Positions 22,722 to 47,878 of a stretch of DNA of 51,512 nt are shown in pieces. The DNA is from Thermodesulfovibrionales bacterium. Lineage in GTDB: Bacteria; Nitrospirota; Thermodesulfovibrionia; Thermodesulfovibrionales; JdFR-86. The notes beneath the pieces are model-generated. The model did no database searches. It was given only the letters and a program-made list of their open reading frames with translations, and was not told the origin of the DNA. The position numbers and the translations under genes are program-made. Every line of letters starts with the position of its first letter. Positions within the stretch are counted from its first letter, which is position 1. Where the stretch lies: NCBI GenBank assembly GCA_030682405.1, contig JAUXOF010000062.1, positions 1-51,512 on the forward strand, read 5' to 3'.

Positions 22722-25151
22722 CTACGGCGCGCCTTTTGTCTCAGGCAAGGAGCCTTCATTGCCGCGGGGGGGTTGAGGAAGCTGCTCCTTCTCCGGCTTC
22801 GCCTTCGGCAGTCCGTTCTCCCTGAAATACTCCATTACCGCACCCTTGGCTGTCCCGTCAACGCGGAGGCCGGTATAGGGGTCTACCGGGCAGGTTACGA
22901 TGCCCTCAGGCACGGTGAAATTCCTTATCTCGGAGCCTTCGAGCGTTGCGCTCATGAACCTGAGCCACACCGGGGCCGCAGCCCTCGCCCCTGTCTCCTT
23001 TTCCCCAAGAGGGCGCATGTCGTCAAACCCGACCCACACGCCTGCAAGAAGCCCGGGGGTATATCCTATGAACCATGCATCCCTGTAGTCGTTCGTTGTG
23101 CCGGTCTTTCCGGCAGCGGGCCTTCCAATCTGTTTCACCCCCGCGCCGGTGCCGTAATTTATGACATCCTGAAGCATGGATGTTATGAGGAATGCGGTCT
23201 GGGGGCTTATGACCTCCTCGCCCACGGGCGTGTTGCTTTCAAGCACCTTGCCTTTTGAGTCTGTGACGTATTTCACTGCCGCCGGGGTCATCCTCTTGCC
23301 GCCGTTTGCAAATGCGGCGTAGCTGAAGACAAGCTCAAGCGGGCTTATGCTCAAGGAGCCGAGGGCCAGAGTAAAGTCCCTCGGAAGGGCGCTCGTTATG
23401 CCAAGGGCCTTTGCAAGGTTTATGGCCTTCTCTATTCCTATATGCTCAAGGAGTTTCACAGTGACCGTGTTCCTTGAATATGCAAGCGCGTCCCTCATGC
23501 TTATGAGGCCGTAGTAGTCGTCGTCGTAGTTCTTGGGGCTCCACTCCTTGTTCGCCCATTTATATGTCACTGCCTCATCATTTACAATGGAGGCGGGCGT
23601 AAACCCGCTGTCAAGGGCAGCGGTGTAGATTATAGGCTTAAATGCAGAGCCTGCCTGCCTCTCTGCATAGAGCGCCCTGTTGTATTCGCTCTTTGTATAA
23701 TCGTACCCGCCGACCAGCGCCCTTATGAAGCCTGTCTGCGGGTCTACGGCCACGACCGCGCCCTGCGCCTCCGGCTCCTGCTCAAGCGTGAGAGTAACGG
23801 CATCGCCCCTTACGGACTTTATGCCGACCCAGATGACATCTCCGGGCTTTAGTATCTTGGTCAGGTTGAACCCCTCAATCGTCTTTTGTTTTGCGCCTGC
23901 GAGGGCTATCTGCGCCCACTGCGCATCAGCCGTCTGGAGCGTTCCGGCTGCGTCTTTTACCAGGACCGAGGCTGCGGTCGTTTTGACGTCGGTTACGGTC
24001 CCCTGCACGATATCGCCTTCCTTAAGAGTGCTGGTCAGCGCGCCGCCGCGCTTTTTCCCGTCCGTGCCGCCTTTTTTGTTGACAAGGCCAAGCATGAATT
24101 TTGCGATGCCCCTTTCTCCGGGCTTTTTGTTCGCTGCCGTCTCTTTTACCGGTTCCCTGTGGTCCACCGGGCCCCTCCAGCCCCTTCTCTTATCAAGCGC
24201 CCTTAAGCCTTGCTTCAGCGCCTGCTGGGCGTTTAACTGCGCCTTCCTGTCCAGAGTTGTGTATACCTTGAGCCCGTCTTTATATACGGCATCCGCACCG
24301 TGCTTGCCCTCGATGTATTTTCTTATGTAATCAATGAAATAGTTGTTTGCCGCATCCCCGTTTTCCCTGCTTGAGATGTGCACGGCCGCCTCCACTGCCT
24401 CCTGCCGCTCTTTTTCCGGTATAAAGCCCTCTTCAGCCATCCTTGAAATCACGAGGGCCTGCCTCTCCTTGGCCTTTTTCATCCTGATAAAAGGGGAGTA
24501 CTGGGACGGGGCCTTAAGCAGTCCCGCAACCAGCGCGGCCTCGGGCAGGGTTATCTCCTCCACGGGTTTTCCAAAGTATGTCCTGCTGGCCATCTCCACC
24601 CCGTATGCGCCGTGTCCGAAATACGCCCTGTTGAGATAAAGCTCAAGTATCTCCTCCTTTGTGAGGCTCCTCTCTATCTTGGTTGCGAGGGCAACCTCCC
24701 TGAGCTTCCTCTGTATGGTCTTCTCCGGCGTAAGGAAGGTCATTTTTGCAAGCTGTTGGGTTATTGTGCTCCCGCCCTCTTTGAGCCGGCGGTGGATGAC
24801 GTCCTTTACCGCCGCCCTCAGTATCGCAAGGTAGTCTATGCCGCCGTGCCGCCAGAAGCTTGAGTCCTCAACCGCAATAACCGCATTTATCAGGTGAGGG
24901 GGCATCTTCTTAAGCGGCACGAATATGCCCTTCTCCGCCCGTATCTCGCCCAAGAGGGTGTCGTCGTCCGCATATACCTTTGTGCTTGGGATGTCCCCGT
25001 AGTGTTTGAGTTCCTCTACAGAAGGCACGCCTTTCATAAGGGCAAAGTAGCCGCCCGCGGCAGCGCCTACGAGGAGGGGCAGGATGAAAAAAACGATTGC
25101 GAGCTTTACCTTAAAGCAAAACCCTTTTTTCCGCTTTCTTTTTGAGCCCAT
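22722..25151 (-). CDS. mrcA: Penicillin-binding protein 1A (bifunctional transglycosylase/transpeptidase)
   Basis: 809 residues. One N-terminal anchor helix (LAIVFFILPLLVGAAAGGYFAL), then GT51 glycosyltransferase (EDSSFWRHGGIDY near residue 95 with the catalytic Glu; GGSTITQQLAK; EILELYLNRAYFGHGAYG). An insert of about 130 residues (GDIVQGTVTDVKTT...) forms the OB-like/ODD region. The transpeptidase has SAFKP (Ser near 502), SRN (AYSRNTVTV) and KTGTT (near 679). It polymerises and cross-links peptidoglycan in the periplasm. The C-terminus is Pro/Glu-rich. A consensus promoter overlaps the start codon region with no room for a leader. Confidence 0.95.
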   Translation of the reverse strand: MGSKRKRKKGFCFKVKLAIVFFILPLLVGAAAGGYFALMKGVPSVEELKHYGDIPSTKVYADDDTLLGEIRAEKGIFVPLKKMPPHLINAVIAVEDSSFWRHGGIDYLAILRAAVKDVIHRRLKEGGSTITQQLAKMTFLTPEKTIQRKLREVALATKIERSLTKEEILELYLNRAYFGHGAYGVEMASRTYFGKPVEEITLPEAALVAGLLKAPSQYSPFIRMKKAKERQALVISRMAEEGFIPEKERQEAVEAAVHISSRENGDAANNYFIDYIRKYIEGKHGADAVYKDGLKVYTTLDRKAQLNAQQALKQGLRALDKRRGWRGPVDHREPVKETAANKKPGERGIAKFMLGLVNKKGGTDGKKRGGALTSTLKEGDIVQGTVTDVKTTAASVLVKDAAGTLQTADAQWAQIALAGAKQKTIEGFNLTKILKPGDVIWVGIKSVRGDAVTLTLEQEPEAQGAVVAVDPQTGFIRALVGGYDYTKSEYNRALYAERQAGSAFKPIIYTAALDSGFTPASIVNDEAVTYKWANKEWSPKNYDDDYYGLISMRDALAYSRNTVTVKLLEHIGIEKAINLAKALGITSALPRDFTLALGSLSISPLELVFSYAAFANGGKRMTPAAVKYVTDSKGKVLESNTPVGEEVISPQTAFLITSMLQDVINYGTGAGVKQIGRPAAGKTGTTNDYRDAWFIGYTPGLLAGVWVGFDDMRPLGEKETGARAAAPVWLRFMSATLEGSEIRNFTVPEGIVTCPVDPYTGLRVDGTAKGAVMEYFRENGLPKAKPEKEQLPQPPRGNEGSLPETKGAP

Positions 25152-25240: not shown

Positions 25241-25615
25241 TCATTTGATATAAAACCGAGCTTTTTCAGCCAACTCTATAGCCTTCAGCTTTATCGCTGA
25301 ATCTTCGGACGGCCAATCTGTAATATTGGCATGATGCGGCGGAGTGTTATCGGGATCGATAGAGAGCCCGATTTGAAAAACATCCAATGCCTTGATATCG
25401 GCACGTCCTAACAAAGACTGTTGCCTCAAGTTTTTACCGATAGCCCATATCTCATTTTCTGGAAGACTTGAAATACGAAAGATAGATAAGCGTCTATTGT
25501 CCTTCGGCGGAACAAATGCAGCATATTTAACTGTATGATCCGAGGAGCGATAATGGTGTTTCGAATAGATATATCGCGCTAATGTCTCATGCGGCGCAAC
25601 GGTATTTAAAACCAT
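25241..25615 (-). CDS. Conserved hypothetical protein, third gene of TIGR04255 operon
   Basis: 124 residues. Recognisable conserved patches are YIYSKHHYRSSDHTVKYAAFVPP, LSIFRISSLPENEIWAIG and PPHHANITDWP. The last patch recurs in hypothetical proteins encoded beside TIGR04255 genes. No transmembrane segment or known catalytic motif is seen; the many His residues might bind metal, but that is only a possibility. It follows the middle gene by eight bases, so co-expression is expected. Function unknown. Confidence 0.6.
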   Translation of the reverse strand: MVLNTVAPHETLARYIYSKHHYRSSDHTVKYAAFVPPKDNRRLSIFRISSLPENEIWAIGKNLRQQSLLGRADIKALDVFQIGLSIDPDNTPPHHANITDWPSEDSAIKLKAIELAEKARFYIK

Positions 25616-25623
25616 AGTCTTTC

Positions 25624-26139
25624 TTACGAGTACAATCTCCGAAGATGCTGTCTGATTGCAAACGGGAGATTATCTTCAAGATATTCTGAGCCGTGAACTT
25701 TATTGCCGGAGAATATTCCAGCATAAGTAATCCGGTGTTTGCCTCCAACGCTGATAACAAAAACCTGCCCCTTTCCTCTGCGCCATTCAAAACCTATCTC
25801 GCCGGTCGGCTCAGCAACAAGCGCAGGAGCAGGGATAGAGGAAGGCATTAAGTCAATTATCTTCATCGCCTCCTCATATGCGTTCATAGTAATAGCATGC
25901 GCTCCATATCCATCCCAGTCTTCACGAGAACACTCCTCACGGATTTCTCGCAAGGAATCACGCATATCACCTGATGGCTGTCCAAAAGTGATAGTTACAG
26001 CATCTTTCAGTTGCGCTATTGCGGTTCCGAGAGTGACGGCTATTTTCTCTGATAATTCACTATCGATTTTGCCGCCGCTGGGCAGAGTCCAGAAGGGAGG
26101 GCAATCAGAGCCGATACAGTGGACGGATAAGTTACTCAT
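25624..26139 (-). CDS. Conserved hypothetical protein, second gene of TIGR04255 operon
   Basis: 171 residues. The centre holds REDWDGYGAHAITMNAYEEA and PAPALVAEPTGEIGFEWRRG, a pattern found in a family of unnamed accessory proteins; WDGYGA is its hallmark. GIFSGNKVHGSEYL precedes a basic C-terminal helix. It overlaps the upstream TIGR04255 gene by four bases (ATGA) and so is translationally coupled. No membrane segment; probably cytoplasmic. Function unknown. Confidence 0.6.
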   Translation of the reverse strand: MSNLSVHCIGSDCPPFWTLPSGGKIDSELSEKIAVTLGTAIAQLKDAVTITFGQPSGDMRDSLREIREECSREDWDGYGAHAITMNAYEEAMKIIDLMPSSIPAPALVAEPTGEIGFEWRRGKGQVFVISVGGKHRITYAGIFSGNKVHGSEYLEDNLPFAIRQHLRRLYS

Positions 26140-26879
26140 TGAAATAGCTCCTTTGTTTTTTCTGTTATGCTTGCAAAGAAAATTTTATTCTTGAAATTAC
26201 GCAATGCTTCAAGCGTCTGCCATGCTTCTTCTTCTCTTATCAATTCCTTCTGTTTGAATACATCTATATCCAATATTATAGGCAAAACCTTTGGATCAAT
26301 ATGCTCAAATGCTTGGGTAATTATTGCGTTAGCATCTATCCCGGGTTCCTGGATAACCATACGTGTTAAGAAACTACTGATACCCTGCGGCAAACCCTTC
26401 GGCACAATCGGGCCAGCCGTCAAATAGTCATCGAAGTCCAAGGCGGTTTGAGAGAAAAAAGGAATATCTATTTTATTGATAAAGCGCAGAGCAACCCTGA
26501 TGATTTCCGGAGAAATCAAATCCTTATAAAGCTGCCACAATCTGAAGGCTTCATCACGAAAGGTCTCCCATTTATCATAAGGCTTTAATCGATTAAACGT
26601 GAACCTGTCAATTCCGGCTTGAAACAATTGTTTGCGGTCAGCCGAAGTAAAAATATAACCATCAACCGTTTCGGTACTGGCTGAAATCGGTGCTTGACCT
26701 CTTTTGAATTCACTCTTGATTTCCAATTTGTGGCGGATCTTCTTTTCAGGATACTGTGCTGAAATTGCATCATGGAGGGTCAGAAGACGCGCAACATCAA
26801 AATCCGCTCCTACCTTAATGTGGATATCAATCAAAGCCTCTGTTATTGGCGCATTTGGCAATAACGGGTACTCAGCCAT
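26136..26879 (-). CDS. TIGR04255 family protein
   Basis: 247 residues. The opening MAEYPLLPNAPITEALIDIHIKV is the signature of TIGR04255, a sporadically distributed family of unknown function; FKRGQAPISAS and YIFTSADRKQLFQ form the strands, and FTFNRLKPYDKWETFRDEAFRLW is the family's second conserved block. First gene of a three-gene minus-strand operon with TATAAT at 26911-26906. The unit has lower GC than the genes on either side, which suggests transfer. Patchy distribution plus tight coupling suits a defence or conflict module, but no activity is known. Confidence 0.75.
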   Translation of the reverse strand: MAEYPLLPNAPITEALIDIHIKVGADFDVARLLTLHDAISAQYPEKKIRHKLEIKSEFKRGQAPISASTETVDGYIFTSADRKQLFQAGIDRFTFNRLKPYDKWETFRDEAFRLWQLYKDLISPEIIRVALRFINKIDIPFFSQTALDFDDYLTAGPIVPKGLPQGISSFLTRMVIQEPGIDANAIITQAFEHIDPKVLPIILDIDVFKQKELIREEEAWQTLEALRNFKNKIFFASITEKTKELFQ

Positions 26880-27034
26880 TATTTTTCTCTCGTTTCATTT
26901 TGTTTATTATATCAGAAAAAAGACTTTTATCTGCATAACTTTCCGGCACGGGGCGTTTCAATCACATCTTCACTCCCGGCCATGGCCCTGCGGTCTTGCC
27001 ATCAATTTTTTAATACATCCATTCTATTCCGCCC

Positions 27035-27751
27035 TCAGGAGGCCGGGCATCCAAAAAGTTCCCTCATCTTTTCATTGTACGAGCCGTCCTCATTATAGAT
27101 GAAAACCGGCGGCTCTATCTCAAGCCCCGCATTGCCGTCCTTTACAGCCTCCATGAGGAGCATCTTGGCCACTGTCTCTTTTTTTGAATGCACAAGCCTC
27201 ATCCTCTTAGGTTCAAGGCGTTCGGCCCTCAGCCTCTCAATCAGCTCAGGAAGCCTCTCAGGCAGATACACGAGGCAGAGCCTTCCGTGATGCTTAAGAA
27301 GGCCGGAGGCGGCCCGTATAAGCTCAGGGAGTTTCAGCTTTATCTCATGCCGGGCTATTGCCCTTTCCTCCTGCCGGCTTATCCTGCCTGTAAGCGGCCT
27401 TCTGAAAGGCGGGTTTGAGACCACCAAAGAGGCTGGCTTAATGACCAGGGGCAGTTTCCGGATGTCGGCCTTCAGCGCAGTTACCCTTTTGCCAAGGTCG
27501 TTAAGAGCGATGTTTTTCTCGGCAAGCTCAAAAAGCCCCTTCTGAAGCTCAACGAGCGTGACGCGCGCCTCAGGGTATTTCTTGGCGAGCAGGAGCCCCA
27601 CCACTCCCCCTCCTGCGCCCAAATCCGCGATTGACATTACCCGCTTTAAGTTCACAAAGTCGTAGAGCAGCAGGGCGTCAACCGAAAAACGATAGCCCGT
27701 CTTCGGCTGGTAGAGCCTGATGTCCCTTATTGTGTCTAAAGTGGTTTCCAT
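27035..27751 (-). CDS. trmN6: tRNA1(Val) (adenine(37)-N6)-methyltransferase family protein
   Basis: 238 residues. SAM-binding motif I is SIADLGAGGGVVGLLLAKK; motif IV is VVSNPPF, the NPPF/Y of N6-adenine and N5-glutamine methyltransferases; RFSVDALLLYDFV at the start matches the TrmN6/YfiC subfamily. In E. coli TrmN6 methylates A37 of tRNA1(Val). The subfamily match is good, though a different RNA target cannot be ruled out. It is divergent from the Fic gene. The gap to the TIGR04255 operon (26880-27034) holds nothing obvious except the operon's -10. Confidence 0.8.
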   Translation of the reverse strand: METTLDTIRDIRLYQPKTGYRFSVDALLLYDFVNLKRVMSIADLGAGGGVVGLLLAKKYPEARVTLVELQKGLFELAEKNIALNDLGKRVTALKADIRKLPLVIKPASLVVSNPPFRRPLTGRISRQEERAIARHEIKLKLPELIRAASGLLKHHGRLCLVYLPERLPELIERLRAERLEPKRMRLVHSKKETVAKMLLMEAVKDGNAGLEIEPPVFIYNEDGSYNEKMRELFGCPAS

Positions 27752-27877: not shown

Positions 27878-29044
27878 ATGAAGACATATGAAAGGACACA
27901 TCCTTGGTTAAAATTTGAGGCAGATATGCGAAATGCCGGTCATTTTTTATGGATGACGCTCGGTGAAGCTATTTCAAAATGCGAGCATATAGCCGGTGTT
28001 CCCTTACAGCCCGAAACAGCTAAAAAACTTCACCTTCTATACCTTGCAAAAGGGATAAGAGCGACAACTGCTATTGAAGGAAACACGCTTACCGAGGAAG
28101 AAGTATTGGAACGGTTAGAAGGTAAGTTGGCATTACCACCCTCACGGGAATATCTCGGGCAAGAGGTCGACAATATTCAAAAAGGCTGCAATAAAATATT
28201 TGCCAGCCTGATGAGTGGGGAATCTGGCGACTTGGCTATCGAGGAAATTAAATCCTTTAATAGGATAGTTTTAGATGGTTTGTCTCCGGGTGAAGATATT
28301 GTACCGGGAGAAATAAGAAACATTTCCGTTGGCGTTGCCGGATATAGAGGGGCTCCGGCTGAAGATTGTGAATATTTGCTACACCGCATGTGCGAATGGT
28401 TGAACGGTCTGGATCAGAATCTATTTGGCGAACCTATGGCTCTGGGTATAGTTCGCGCAATATTGTCTCACCTTTACATAGCGTGGATACATCCATTTGC
28501 CGACGGTAACGGTAGAACGGCAAGGCTTGTCGAATTTAAATCGCTTCTGGCCGCAGGTGTCCCAACCGCCGCCGCGCATCTATTGAGTAATCATTACAAC
28601 CTTACAAGAAGCGAATACTATAAACAGTTGGACCATGCAAGCAAATCCAACGGGGATATAGTTCAGTTTGTTCATTATGCGCTTAAGGGTTTTGTTGATG
28701 GTCTCAGGGGACAAATTCAACACATACAAAAACAACAGTTGGAGATTGCATGGCGGGATTTTGTTTATGAGAGTTTCAGGGACAAAATCGGGCCTAAATA
28801 CGAAAGAAGGCGGAATCTGGCGCTTGACATTTCAAAACAGGCCGCCCCTGTGCCGTTTAACAAAATTCGCGAGGTTAGTCCGAGAATTGCCGCAAGCTAT
28901 GCAAGCAAAACATCAAGGACAATCAGGAGAGACCTTTTAGAACTGCAAAAAATAGAACTTATAAAACATGTAGCAGAGGGCTATGTTGACAGGAGCGATA
29001 GAATGTTATCGTTCTTACCTCAACGGCGGCAAAATAAAAATTAA
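27878..29044 (+). CDS. Fic-domain AMP-transferase, class II (N-terminal inhibitory helix)
   Basis: 388 residues. The Fic core HPFADGNGRTARLVEF (near residue 208) has all catalytic residues, including the GNGR used by AMP-transferring Fic enzymes. An inhibitory (S/T)-x3-E-(G/N) motif, TTAIEGN, lies near residue 66, ahead of the Fic core, defining class II; the helix blocks ATP until displaced. A Fic-N type domain covers the first ~130 residues. The last 90 look like a winged helix (RRNLALDISKQAAPVPFNKI, SKTSRTIRRDLLELQKIELI), suggesting DNA binding. No separate antitoxin gene is adjacent, as expected when inhibition is built in. GC is lower than the surroundings. Confidence 0.85.
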   Translation: MKTYERTHPWLKFEADMRNAGHFLWMTLGEAISKCEHIAGVPLQPETAKKLHLLYLAKGIRATTAIEGNTLTEEEVLERLEGKLALPPSREYLGQEVDNIQKGCNKIFASLMSGESGDLAIEEIKSFNRIVLDGLSPGEDIVPGEIRNISVGVAGYRGAPAEDCEYLLHRMCEWLNGLDQNLFGEPMALGIVRAILSHLYIAWIHPFADGNGRTARLVEFKSLLAAGVPTAAAHLLSNHYNLTRSEYYKQLDHASKSNGDIVQFVHYALKGFVDGLRGQIQHIQKQQLEIAWRDFVYESFRDKIGPKYERRRNLALDISKQAAPVPFNKIREVSPRIAASYASKTSRTIRRDLLELQKIELIKHVAEGYVDRSDRMLSFLPQRRQNKN

Positions 29045-44923: not shown

Positions 44924-45466
44924 CTAATTTTTCAAAAAAGGTTCGAGCTTAACGGTTAGATGAAATGTTTTTGCCAATTCAATCACTTTTTTTATATCGG
45001 CTTTTTTCAAAAGCCGCTTTATATCAACGCTATCCTGTTCCGACAAAGGCAGGAGTTTAAGAAGTATGAGATATTCAGGGGTGGCCACCTTCACGCGCTT
45101 ATCGAACACATCAGTCGGCAGGGCGTGCTCTATGGCTTTCTGCGCCAATTTAAACCCCCTTGCGCTTATAAGGTCTATTTCTATCTGCCCGAAAATAAAG
45201 GAGAGTTTTTCTTTTATATGAGTCCGCTGATTCCCTTCCTGAAGGAAGACTCTTTTATGGAAACGGTGTTCGATATCCGAGGAAAGATTTTTCCACGAGA
45301 CGTCTTTATGAAGGAGCACGACTACATCGACATCTCTGGTTGTTCTCGGCCTCGTCCACGCAGAAAGGGCAAGCCCGCCGATAAGCGCGTAATCCTTTAT
45401 TGTCCCGCCAGCCCGAAGTTCGTCAAGAAGCGAAACGGCATTTCTGAATGCCTCGACTACGGGCAC
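44924..45466 (-). CDS. Nucleotidyltransferase-fold protein (AbiEii/MNT-like)
   Basis: 180 residues from a GTG start that overlaps the stop of a small upstream frame (TAGTG). YALIGGLALSAWTRPRTTRDVDVVVLL carries the GG...D-x-D of DNA-polymerase-beta-like nucleotidyltransferases, and GQIEIDLISARG gives the third acidic residue. The C-terminal half (about 110-180) is helical. This fold is used by MNT antitoxins and AbiEii toxins; which role applies here is unknown. It lies in an AT-richer stretch after the methyltransferase. A paired small gene upstream supports a two-component accessory module. Confidence 0.65.
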   Translation of the reverse strand: MPVVEAFRNAVSLLDELRAGGTIKDYALIGGLALSAWTRPRTTRDVDVVVLLHKDVSWKNLSSDIEHRFHKRVFLQEGNQRTHIKEKLSFIFGQIEIDLISARGFKLAQKAIEHALPTDVFDKRVKVATPEYLILLKLLPLSEQDSVDIKRLLKKADIKKVIELAKTFHLTVKLEPFLKN

Positions 45467-45576
45467 TACTTCTTCCCGTTTTTCCGGGCGGCCTTCCGAA
45501 CACCCTTTTTCAGGGCCAACGCAAGCTCAAGCAGTTCAAGAGAGGTTTCTATGTTTTTCCCGTTCGGCTTTTTCAT
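45466..45576 (-). CDS. Small basic peptide coupled to the nucleotidyltransferase gene
   Basis: 36 residues (MKKPNGKNIETSLELLELAL then ALKKGVRKAARKNGKK). The TAG stop overlaps the GTG start of the nucleotidyltransferase gene by one base. A TATAAT (45592-45587) precedes the ATG by ten bases. Lys/Arg-rich with an amphipathic helix of Leu and Glu; a possible partner protein. It is short, and coding status rests on the coupling, so treat with caution. Confidence 0.45.
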   Translation of the reverse strand: MKKPNGKNIETSLELLELALALKKGVRKAARKNGKK

Positions 45577-45660
45577 GGCGTACTGGATTATAGCATAGCT
45601 TGAACCGCATGGCGGAATCAGTTCATGCGAACTAAGATAGAATTTATTTTAAAATTTATC

Positions 45661-45690
45661 TTGACAAGAATGTTTAATATGATTTAATAT
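45661..45690 (+). promoter_or_regulatory. Promoter and phased repeats upstream of HTH-domain gene
   Basis: TTGACA (45661-45666), 18-bp spacer, TAATAT (45685-45690). Three imperfect 10-bp repeats of the form GTTTAATAT occur at about 45670-45700, one helical turn apart, overlapping the -10. Confidence 0.5.
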
Positions 45691-45731
45691 GTTTAAATAA
45701 GATTAGCATAAGATTTAAAGGAGATGAGGTT

Positions 45732-46535
45732 ATGAAGGAATGGATGAATGTAAAAGAATTAAGTGAATATTTGGGACTACCAGAAAGTAAAATTCGTTTT
45801 TTAATCAAACAAAAAGGCATTCCCTTTTCATCTCGACTTGGAGAGCCGCGGTTTAACAAAAAAGAAATCGACGAGTGGATGAGAGGAGAGTCATCCACAG
45901 AAACGGAAGGAAGGGACAACATGCTGAAAATCCATGACGAGGGAAAAGACTTTATTTATCGGGGGAAACCAATTAAAGATAATACGCTATCTGCAAGCAG
46001 AGTCCTTATTGGGGAAACGCCTTTAAATCGTTTGCCCGGATTTATAAAAAAGACCGTAGAGAAAGTGAAAGGGAAGAAAGAAGGCTATTTGTATCGTGAA
46101 GAATTTAAACCCTTCCTAAATAATTTTAACGACTTCCTCAGGCTTTCTTGTCAGCTTGGGTTAATTAATAATTTGGTGGAGGAGGAGAGAAAAAAACATT
46201 ACCATCCTACAGAATACGCTGAAAGAATTTATCACGAAAACGATCCCCATCAGATAAAGCAAATTATCCTTGAAAGTATTCTTAATATTGTAAGAAAACA
46301 AATTGAGATTAAACCCGATGAAAAACATGCCGTTCTCCTCCTATGGTATTTACTGAAATTAAAAGAAGAGGGGATTAAACCTATGGAATATCATTTTAAG
46401 TTAGATAAAGATAAACCCAATAATTATTTTCCGAAAATACGCTTGGATTTCGCATCGGGCTTGAACTATTTTTTGTTCGAAGGCGATGAGGAAAAAGAAA
46501 GGGAATTTCTAAGTGAGTGGGGTAAGCTTATGTAA
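45732..46535 (+). CDS. Excisionase/MerR-type HTH protein with unknown C-terminal domain
   Basis: 267 residues. The first ~55 are a HTH_17/excisionase-like winged helix (WMNVKELSEYLGLPESKIRFLI, FSSRLGEPRFNKKEIDEWM). The remainder is a long charged domain that I do not recognise (NTLSASRVLIGETPLNRLPG, YLYREEFKPFLNNFND, DEKHAVLLLWYLLKLKE). Excisionase-like domains commonly bind DNA in phage, ICE or regulatory settings. The gene is markedly AT-rich compared with neighbours, a sign of transfer. It has its own promoter with phased repeats; autoregulation is plausible. AAGGAGATGAGG lies just ahead of ATG 45732. Confidence 0.6.
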   Translation: MKEWMNVKELSEYLGLPESKIRFLIKQKGIPFSSRLGEPRFNKKEIDEWMRGESSTETEGRDNMLKIHDEGKDFIYRGKPIKDNTLSASRVLIGETPLNRLPGFIKKTVEKVKGKKEGYLYREEFKPFLNNFNDFLRLSCQLGLINNLVEEERKKHYHPTEYAERIYHENDPHQIKQIILESILNIVRKQIEIKPDEKHAVLLLWYLLKLKEEGIKPMEYHFKLDKDKPNNYFPKIRLDFASGLNYFLFEGDEEKEREFLSEWGKLM

Positions 46536-46637
46536 CGCCTCAGTCACTATCAGAGTTAAGGGTGAGAGCCGCATGGGTCATCTGCCCTGCCTTAGAAAAG
46601 CGTTGACATTTTGGGCTCTTTGATGTGCCAAAAAACC

Positions 46638-46666
46638 TTGACATTTTACGGTTTAAAGGCTATTCT
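46638..46666 (+). promoter_or_regulatory. Promoter of the pilMNOPQ operon
   Basis: TTGACA (46638-46643), 17-bp spacer, TATTCT (46661-46666). A second TTGACATTTT copy lies 35 bp upstream at 46603. AAAAGGAGG precedes the first gene. Confidence 0.7.
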
Positions 46667-46696
46667 TTTAAAGTATAACTTTAAAAGGAGGCTTTT

Positions 46697-46924
46697 ATGA
46701 CTGCTGTGACCTTTGCCGTAACCATAGGGGCGCTTGCATTTCTAATGGGTTTTCTACTCCTGTTTATGCCTTCCGTGCTTAAGAGGCTCAACGAACTATC
46801 CGCAAGGATGATAGCCAGGGTAGACACCATCACTTTCTCATACAGGATAGGGTTCGGCATATCGCTTATGATAATTGCCGCGTTCATGTTCTTCATGGCG
46901 TATTATTTTGCAAAGAGGTACTGA
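46697..46924 (+). CDS. Small two-helix membrane protein ahead of pilM
   Basis: 75 residues. Two hydrophobic segments (VTIGALAFLMGFLLLFMPSV and FGISLMIIAAFMFFMAYYFA) around a basic cytoplasmic loop (KRLNELSARMIARVD). No named family. It lies three bases before pilM and shares its promoter, so a role in type IV pilus assembly is possible. AGGAGG precedes ATG 46697 by about five bases. Confidence 0.6.
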   Translation: MTAVTFAVTIGALAFLMGFLLLFMPSVLKRLNELSARMIARVDTITFSYRIGFGISLMIIAAFMFFMAYYFAKRY

Positions 46925-46927
46925 TTA

Positions 46928-47878
46928 GTGGGGTTTTTCCGGCCGGTCCAGTTGGGAGTGGACCTCGGCGGCAGCTCGATTAAGGTTGCCGAGGTCAAGG
47001 GTAAAAAAGTAGTTCTTGCCGCCTATGCCGACATACCAAAGGAAATAAGGGAAAACGAGGCGTTTCTGATAGGCGCGCTCCGTGAGTTCTTAAGCAGCAT
47101 CGGCGCACAGGGCAGGCAGGGGGTTGTCCAGCTTCCGGCGCAGCTTGCATTCGTGAGGGCCGTAAACTTCCCTCCTATGCCGCATGCCGAGCTAAAGGAG
47201 GCTGTGAAGTGGGAGATAAAAAGACAGCTTCCGTACCCGCTTGAAGAGGCGGTGCATGATTATGTCGCGGTGGAGACTGCCGAGGGCATTGCAGTTACAT
47301 TCGCCTCGGCGGAAAGAAGGGCTGTACAGAGGTATCTTTTCCCGTTCCGGGAAGCGGGTCTTGATGTGACTGCCGTGGATGTCAGCCCGATGTGTCTCAT
47401 AAGGTCGCTTAAACCCCGGTCCCCGGGCAATGCGATAATACTTGACATAGGCGGGCTCTCGACAGAGATAAATATAATAAAGGGCGGGGTGCTGCGCATA
47501 ACAAGGACAGTTGAGCTCGGAGGCGATTTCATAAAACAGCATTTTAAGGACGGGGGGGCCGGCGCAGAGGAAGCTGAAAAGATATTGATGGAAGGCGGGG
47601 AGGATGAGTTAAAGGTTCCCCTCGATGAATTCCTGAGAGAAGTCACCCGCTCCATGGATTACTATCAGGCAAATTTCAAGGAGAAGACCTTCTCAGATGT
47701 CATACTTACCGGGGGGGTTGCGATAAACCCGGGCGTAAGGAGTTATTTCTTGCGCGCCCTTGACATGCCGGTGAGCGTGCCGGACCCGTTTGAAGGCCTT
47801 GTCATGGCGGATGAGACCATGAGGCGGCTCGGCCCGAGGTTTTCCGTGGCAGTGGGGCTTGCAGGGAGGTCTGAGTGA
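46928..47878 (+). CDS. pilM: Type IV pilus inner-membrane assembly ATPase-fold protein PilM
   Basis: 316 residues from GTG 46928. The actin-like fold begins VQLGVDLGGSSIKVAEVKGKKVVL (phosphate 1 motif); NAIILDIGGLSTEINIIKGG is phosphate 2; VILTGGVAINPGV is the adenosine motif. PilM binds PilN in the cytoplasm. The stop overlaps the pilN GTG start (GTGA). Confidence 0.93.
   Translation: MGFFRPVQLGVDLGGSSIKVAEVKGKKVVLAAYADIPKEIRENEAFLIGALREFLSSIGAQGRQGVVQLPAQLAFVRAVNFPPMPHAELKEAVKWEIKRQLPYPLEEAVHDYVAVETAEGIAVTFASAERRAVQRYLFPFREAGLDVTAVDVSPMCLIRSLKPRSPGNAIILDIGGLSTEINIIKGGVLRITRTVELGGDFIKQHFKDGGAGAEEAEKILMEGGEDELKVPLDEFLREVTRSMDYYQANFKEKTFSDVILTGGVAINPGVRSYFLRALDMPVSVPDPFEGLVMADETMRRLGPRFSVAVGLAGRSE

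What the first reader, a model, noticed from the sequence alone, without database searches (positions are those of the whole stretch)
25241..26879. TIGR04255 three-gene operon, candidate conflict module
The TIGR04255 protein, a WDGYGA-family protein and a HANI-WP protein are coupled (4-bp overlap, then 8-bp gap) with their own -10 and GC below the surroundings. All three families are unnamed and patchily distributed; a fixed trio with no metabolic neighbours suggests a defence, toxin-antitoxin or similar system.
Basis: partly seen in the sequence, partly recalled or inferred. Interest (0 to 1): 0.68.

Follow-up and report, generated by a model that had tools for sequence, protein, structure and literature searches.

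The report
TIGR04255 tripartite toxin-antitoxin-like operon
Three linked bacterial genes look like a self-poisoning anti-virus switch (controller, antidote, toxin), and the controller gene turns out to be shared by many operons that carry different, well-known toxins.

Summary
In detail: three co-oriented genes at 26879-25241 (minus strand), joined by a 4-bp overlap and an 8-bp gap, in low-GC DNA. Gene A is TIGR04255 (131.7 bits, cut-off 30). Genes B (WDGYGA) and C (HANI-WP) have no Pfam family.

The trio recurs in the same order in several phyla. In Nitrospirota, 22 of 25 B loci abut TIGR04255. B and C match, weakly, the two halves of PADLOC's untested candidate PDC-M32.

The main new result is that TIGR04255 heads a whole class of such operons. 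In its siblings the middle gene resembles an antitoxin (HTH, HicB-like, VapB-like) and the third gene is a toxin: PIN, Zeta, MazF, HEPN, weak HicA, or two unknown families. On the TIGR04255 tree the toxins swap. By position, B is the antitoxin and C the toxin. C's confident model (pLDDT 96) most resembles, without significance, Tpt1-type ADP-ribosyltransferase folds.

Viral contigs carry the B domain alone, without the N-terminal extension; a bacterial B-C pair that lacks A also lacks the extension. I infer that A controls B through this extension and that viral B may be an antidote.

It works like toxin-antitoxin-chaperone systems, but no SecB likeness was found.

The parts
26136..26879 (-). 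Gene A: TIGR04255 protein, 247 aa; proposed controller (sensor/chaperone-like) component
   Evidence: NCBIfam TIGR04255.1, 4e-38, 131.7 bits, cut-off 30; AF2 model pLDDT 95.4; conserved R132, N135 (A8) and E14, D204, F234 (A8, A9)
25624..26139 (-). Gene B: WDGYGA protein, 171 aa; variable N-terminal extension (about residues 1-70) plus conserved C-terminal domain (about 71-171); proposed antitoxin
   Evidence: No Pfam/NCBIfam hit; C-terminal part matches PDC-M32A 269-325 weakly, 0.0019, and 9 of 12 family members match it, best 2.8e-8; W75, D76, G113, W119 at least 90% conserved over 80 sequences
25241..25615 (-). Gene C: HANI-WP protein, 124 aa; proposed toxin, possibly of ADP-ribosyltransferase-like fold
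   Evidence: PDC-M32B 8.1e-5; S44 and H95 invariant, R14 and F34 at least 90% over 59 sequences; AF2 pLDDT 96.3; Foldseek top nine hits all Tpt1/KptA, best E 0.26, not significant
26136..26139 (-). 4-bp overlap joining A and B
   Evidence: sequence; the same overlap in many homologous operons
26907..26915 (-). possible extended -10 element TGATATAAT of the operon
   Evidence: sequence; scan not clearly above shuffles

Best explanation
The operon is a tripartite toxin-antitoxin-like conflict module, most likely anti-phage. C is the toxin, possibly an ADP-ribosyltransferase-fold enzyme that uses NAD+. The C-terminal WDGYGA domain of B neutralises C. TIGR04255 (A) acts through B's N-terminal extension to keep B folded or active, and releases it when infection or stress occupies A, which frees C to stop growth. 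Shown computationally: conserved co-transcribable order A-B-C; exchange of antitoxin/toxin pairs behind TIGR04255; recognised toxins in the third position of sibling operons; a short B in solo viral copies and in one operon without A. Inferred: which protein is the toxin, the chemistry of C, binding of A to B's extension, and the phage trigger.
For: (1) Co-occurrence: the trio is contiguous and in the same order in Nitrospirota, Planctomycetota, Verrucomicrobiota, Bacteroidota, Cloacimonadota, Desulfobacterota, Alphaproteobacteria and other Pseudomonadota and in viral contigs; a cyanobacterial plasmid shows TIGR04255 followed by two unassigned genes of matching size and spacing. 22 of 25 B loci in 296 Nitrospirota genomes abut TIGR04255. 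(2) Sibling operons: third genes hit PIN (4e-12, 1.6e-16), Zeta_toxin (5.6e-10), DUF7689 (6e-43), HEPN (6e-4, just under cut-off), HicA weakly (0.025) in Pfam, and MazF/PemK structures (8.5e-6). Of 63-64 distinct Nitrospirota loci, about 51 carry a recognised third gene; in 39 control loci the same seeds hit once. The seeds come from the TIGR04255 loci themselves, so the Pfam and PDB hits are the independent part. (3) Middle genes resemble antitoxins: HTH proteins (weak; by inspection), HicB-like and VapB-like by inspection. (4) Toxin exchange on the TIGR04255 tree: 10 label changes against a minimum of 6; PIN (L176) nested among QDCD operons under a 100/100 branch. (5) After that exchange the middle genes of L181 (QDCD) and L176 (PIN) still share their N-terminal 78 residues (score 71, null maximum 46) but not their C-termini. 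(6) B's extension before WDGY: median 67 residues in operons, 20.5 in solo viral B (p = 1e-6), and 24 in L122, which has B-C but no A. (7) C model and its Tpt1/RES/HopF neighbours, echoed in a second library.
Against: The Foldseek matches of C are not significant (best E 0.26, TM about 0.4-0.5), and hhalign against an automatically gathered RES set of poor quality gave nothing. C has an invariant His where classical ARTs have Glu. TIGR04255 has no convincing structural match: the best E (4.8e-5) has TM 0.27, and SecB is not among the 50 listed. A general hydrophobic tag in the middle genes was tested and is absent in B. About nine TIGR04255 loci with room had no recognised partner, so TIGR04255 may also act alone. 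No experiment exists. The restriction-modification neighbours scanned were picked because they looked like such genes, so they are illustrative, not a statistic.
Confidence: 0.6

Rival explanations
1. A defence module without toxin-antitoxin logic: A, B and C form one complex in which A senses a phage protein, B is a scaffold and C the effector, held inactive by assembly rather than by a neutralising antitoxin.
For: PADLOC lists B and C relatives as phage-defence candidates; canonical PDC-M32 fuses another domain to B, which suits a sensor-adaptor; type I, IIG and III restriction-modification genes lie beside several loci (chosen by eye).
Against: Sibling operons carry classical toxin-antitoxin toxins with antitoxin-like middle genes; viral solo B fits an antidote better than a scaffold.
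Confidence: 0.2
2. A toxin-antitoxin or addiction element whose main role is stabilising mobile DNA or responding to stress, not defence.
For: Plasmid copies, patchy distribution, absence from sampled same-family genomes, broken copies (L112, L113, L012).
Against: Many chromosomal copies lie next to restriction-modification genes; a TIGR04255-HEPN operon sits inside a type III restriction-modification operon (L170); viral carriage of solo B suggests conflict with phages.
Confidence: 0.3
3. A housekeeping or metabolic operon.
For: Neighbours at 22722-25151 and 27035-27751 read as cell-wall synthesis and an RNA/protein methyltransferase.
Against: Neighbours differ between the homologous loci; the trio is absent from three same-family genomes; low GC; pseudogenes occur.
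Confidence: 0.03
4. B is the toxin and C the antitoxin or regulator.
For: B carries the most conserved motif (WDGYGA), and neither protein has a known fold by sequence.
Against: In sibling operons the recognisable toxin is third and the antitoxin-like gene second; viruses carry B without C; C has invariant polar residues in a compact fold.
Confidence: 0.12

Closest known systems
PADLOC candidate PDC-M32 (PDC-M32A + PDC-M32B; unvalidated, from a guilt-by-embedding screen as reported in PMC12988326)
   Same: C-terminal WDGYGA-like domain of PDC-M32A matches B; PDC-M32B matches C; the B-C order is the same
   Different: PDC-M32A carries a ~250-aa N-terminal module, not recognised as TIGR04255, fused to B; here a separate TIGR04255 protein stands in its place and B and C hit the models only weakly
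Toxin-antitoxin-chaperone (TAC) systems, especially CmdTAC (PMC11618068)
   Same: Three genes; variable toxins behind one common third component; CmdT is an ADP-ribosyltransferase and C may have an ART-like fold; antitoxin segment proposed to depend on the third component
   Different: TAC chaperones are SecB-like; TIGR04255 showed no SecB match. TAC antitoxins use C-terminal addiction domains, here the extension is N-terminal. No function is shown here
Type II toxin-antitoxin families VapC/PIN, HicAB, MazF, Zeta, HEPN
   Same: These toxins occupy C's position in sibling TIGR04255 operons
   Different: The ordinary two-gene versions lack TIGR04255; C itself belongs to none of these families
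tRNA 2'-phosphotransferase Tpt1/KptA and RES toxins (ADP-ribosyltransferase fold)
   Same: Top structural neighbours of the C model
   Different: No sequence similarity; matches not significant; conserved R-S-H instead of the known catalytic sets

Membership tests
TIGR04255 (NCBIfam) | score over the curated cut-off across the whole model | tested here: met
   131.7 bits against 30, model positions 2-251 of 252
PADLOC PDC-M32 | full-length PDC-M32A protein (N-terminal module plus B domain) | tested here: not met
   only positions 269-325 of 375 match, E 0.0019; a true member scores 2.6e-155
PADLOC PDC-M32 | PDC-M32B partner directly downstream | tested here: inconclusive
   C matches positions 17-114 of 123 with E 8.1e-5, 21 bits; a true member 6e-54
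Toxin-antitoxin-chaperone (TAC) | SecB-like chaperone as third component | tested here: not met
   no Pfam hit; no SecB among the 50 listed Foldseek matches of a pLDDT 95 model
Toxin-antitoxin-chaperone (TAC) | three-gene operon in which one third component serves different toxins | tested here: met
   PIN, Zeta, HEPN, DUF7689, MazF, HicA-like, ART-like behind TIGR04255; exchange on the tree
Toxin-antitoxin-chaperone (TAC) | antitoxin extension that makes it depend on the third component | tested here: inconclusive
   B extension missing in solo viral B and in the A-less L122; shared N-terminus across a toxin exchange; no hydrophobic tag in B; binding not testable here
Type II toxin-antitoxin system | C toxic alone and neutralised by B | not testable with these tools
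   needs expression experiments
ADP-ribosyltransferase superfamily (for C) | ART fold | tested here: inconclusive
   top nine PDB matches are Tpt1/KptA, plus HopF and RES further down, but best E 0.26; Tpt1 again at rank 7 in BFVD
ADP-ribosyltransferase superfamily (for C) | catalytic triad (R-S-E, H-Y-E or equivalent) | tested here: inconclusive

The most novel reading that the evidence does not exclude
TIGR04255 defines a broad, undescribed class of tripartite toxin-antitoxin defence systems with a non-SecB controller that couples to antitoxins through exchangeable N-terminal extensions; the window's member uses a new minimal ADP-ribosyltransferase-like toxin (C); and phages carry the bare WDGYGA domain as a controller-independent antidote.
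Probability: 0.35. Interest if true: 0.88.

Novelty: new variant of a known kind. Interest (0 to 1): 0.74.

Why it matters
If right, a family that annotators call only 'TIGR04255 family protein' (57 of 296 Nitrospirota and 24 of 279 Pseudomonadota genomes searched) becomes the common controller of many toxin systems, comparable to SecB-like chaperones in TAC systems but apparently of another fold. That would give a new handle for finding defence systems, since each TIGR04255 gene points to an antitoxin-toxin pair downstream, including two toxin candidates of unknown kind (the QDCD family and DUF7689). The viral solo B domain gives a directly testable counter-defence candidate.

Tried and rejected
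PHROGs gave nothing for A, B, C and at most weak hits for solo viral B. PDB sequence searches for B, C and A gave nothing useful; the one apparent TIGR04255 hit, 9hnh, is a de novo designed solenoid and is spurious. Cultured phages held no B relative by tblastn for four B queries, so the viral evidence rests on IMG/VR contigs. A KptA comparison set could not be gathered (no PF01885 in 148 genomes), and the RES comparison gave no sequence link. hhalign between A, B and C shows no mutual homology. The idea that all middle genes carry a signal-peptide-like hydrophobic tag was tested: true for several QDCD operons, not for B. Synteny in five relatives did not give a clean empty site, because the downstream penicillin-binding-protein gene is not next to the methyltransferase there. 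B was not modelled (two jobs only).

Full report
WHAT IS THERE. Three minus-strand genes, A (26136-26879, 247 aa), B (25624-26139, 171 aa) and C (25241-25615, 124 aa), are joined by a 4-bp overlap and an 8-bp gap. A is TIGR04255 far above the cut-off. B and C have no Pfam or NCBIfam family. GC is 43.3% against 51.8% for the window, and only 3% of equal stretches are as low. A plausible extended -10 precedes A, although promoter-like matches in the region are not clearly above chance.

KNOWN CANDIDATE. PADLOC has weak matches: B to the C-terminal quarter of PDC-M32A and C to PDC-M32B. Nine of 12 aligned B relatives match PDC-M32A, best 2.8e-8. A canonical pair, L067, hits both models at 2.6e-155 and 6e-54. 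There an N-terminal module that is not recognised as TIGR04255 is fused to B, and no separate TIGR04255 gene was seen. PDC systems are unvalidated candidates from a guilt-by-embedding screen (PMC12988326); PDC-M32 has been listed in a Sinorhizobium prophage (PMC12429752).

CO-OCCURRENCE. Relatives of B in GTDB genomes lie in the order A-B-C in Nitrospirota, Planctomycetota, Verrucomicrobiota, Bacteroidota, Alphaproteobacteria and others. A cyanobacterial plasmid has TIGR04255 followed by two unassigned genes of matching size and spacing. Among 296 Nitrospirota genomes, 57 have TIGR04255 and 24 have B; comparing coordinates, 22 of 25 B loci abut TIGR04255. The three same-family genomes in both searches have neither. 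Broken copies exist: a transposase-like gene next to a truncated B (L112), an internal stop (L113) and a disrupted frame (L012).

SIBLING OPERONS. The remaining TIGR04255 genes are mostly not alone. With 3-7 kb around each, the gene is typically first of two or three tightly spaced genes. Third genes match Pfam Zeta_toxin (5.6e-10), PIN (4e-12, 1.6e-16) and DUF7689 (6e-43) over the cut-off, HEPN just under it (6e-4), and HicA weakly (0.025). A further unnamed family has a conserved S/T-x-C-D-like motif ('QDCD' here). Middle genes include helix-turn-helix proteins and, by inspection, HicB-like and VapB-like ones. In 63-64 distinct Nitrospirota loci the third gene is C in about 25, QDCD in 9-12, HEPN 3-4, HicA-like 4, PIN 3, DUF7689 2, Zeta 1; three are cut by contig ends and about nine have no recognised partner. 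In 39 control loci the seeds hit once. The seeds were taken from the TIGR04255 loci, so the independent evidence is the Pfam and PDB matches. In Pseudomonadota (24 of 279 genomes) the same picture holds, with a MazF/PemK-like third gene as well (L241, PDB mRNA interferases, 8.5e-6).

EXCHANGE OF TOXINS. A maximum-likelihood tree of 51 TIGR04255 proteins needs 10 changes of toxin class where 6 is the least possible. Supported cases include a PIN operon (L176) inside QDCD operons (100/100) and a PIN/DUF7689 pair (L184/L186, 100/99). Long branches make the deepest joins unsure. For L176 and L181 the middle genes share their first 78 residues (score 71 against a shuffled maximum of 46) while their C-termini and toxins differ. 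This suggests that the N-terminal part goes with TIGR04255 and the C-terminal part with the toxin; it is one case, so it is a lead.

B ALONE. Viral contigs hold complete trios (L072, L073, L076) and also B domains without A or C, some beside ORFs that read as phage integrase or endolysin. Solo viral B has a median of 20.5 residues before the WDGY motif; operon B has 67 (p = 1e-6; sequences are related, so the p value overstates independence). A bacterial B-C pair without A (L122, next to a type I specificity gene) has 24. Hence the reading that the extension serves A and the WDGYGA domain serves C. Another B-C pair without TIGR04255 (L140) does keep 57 residues, but it has a different small ORF upstream.

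STRUCTURES. C (59-row alignment) models at pLDDT 96.3. Its PDB neighbours are headed by nine Tpt1/KptA entries, with HopF (AvrPphF ORF2) and the RES toxin further down; the best E is 0.26. In BFVD a viral Tpt1 is rank 7, again not significant. S44 and H95 are invariant and R14 nearly so. An ART-like core is therefore the leading but unproven guess. A models at pLDDT 95.4 as a long-stranded antiparallel sheet with long helices. Foldseek gave no global match (best E 4.8e-5 at TM 0.27) and no SecB in the 50 listed.

MECHANISM. The arrangement works like CmdTAC, where a SecB-like chaperone stabilises an antitoxin until phage capsid protein displaces it and frees an mRNA ADP-ribosyltransferase (PMC11618068). 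By analogy A holds B, B holds C, and a phage product breaks the hold. The toxin role of C, the A-B contact and the trigger are inferences. Membership in TAC is not claimed, because the SecB criterion was tested and not met. Membership in PDC-M32 is not claimed either, because the PDC-M32A N-terminal module is absent.

CONTEXT. Several loci sit beside restriction-modification genes: type I specificity (L004, L007, L122), type IIG (L009, L182), type I methyltransferase and restriction subunit (L173, L178), and a TIGR04255-HEPN operon inside a type III system (L170). These were chosen by eye for confirmation, so they illustrate the context but do not measure it. No paper in the held library names TIGR04255, and no bioRxiv preprints or most subscription papers are in it, so prior description elsewhere cannot be excluded.

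Noticed in passing
window 27878-29044 (+): A Fic/DOC protein (Pfam 1.9e-14) in low-GC DNA beside the trio; in same-family relatives L164 and L165 the flanking conserved genes are adjacent without it (gap 147 bp in L164), so it looks like a separate insertion.
   Followed up: partly
L075, L077-L085, L088-L090, L095-L099 (IMG/VR contigs): Stand-alone WDGYGA domains of about 110-135 aa in viral contigs, some next to integrase-like or endolysin-like genes, without A or C.
   Followed up: partly
L169, L175, L177-L179, L181-L183, L187, L197, L203 and, in Pseudomonadota, L240, L242, L243, L247, L251, L262, L264: A family of about 180-280 aa with a conserved S/T-x-C-D-like motif ('QDCD'), third gene in TIGR04255 operons; the one scanned gave no Pfam hit; a candidate toxin of unknown kind.
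   Followed up: partly
L173, L186, L210: DUF7689 (NCIAWAA) as third gene of TIGR04255 operons; a candidate toxin or effector.
   Followed up: no
L170 489-6445: A TIGR04255-HEPN operon nested between type III methyltransferase and type III restriction genes.
   Followed up: partly
L105, L106, L140: B with small unrelated ORFs upstream in place of TIGR04255, suggesting further alternative partners.
   Followed up: no
window 45000-47000: Second low-GC stretch (40-43%) in the window, not examined.
   Followed up: no
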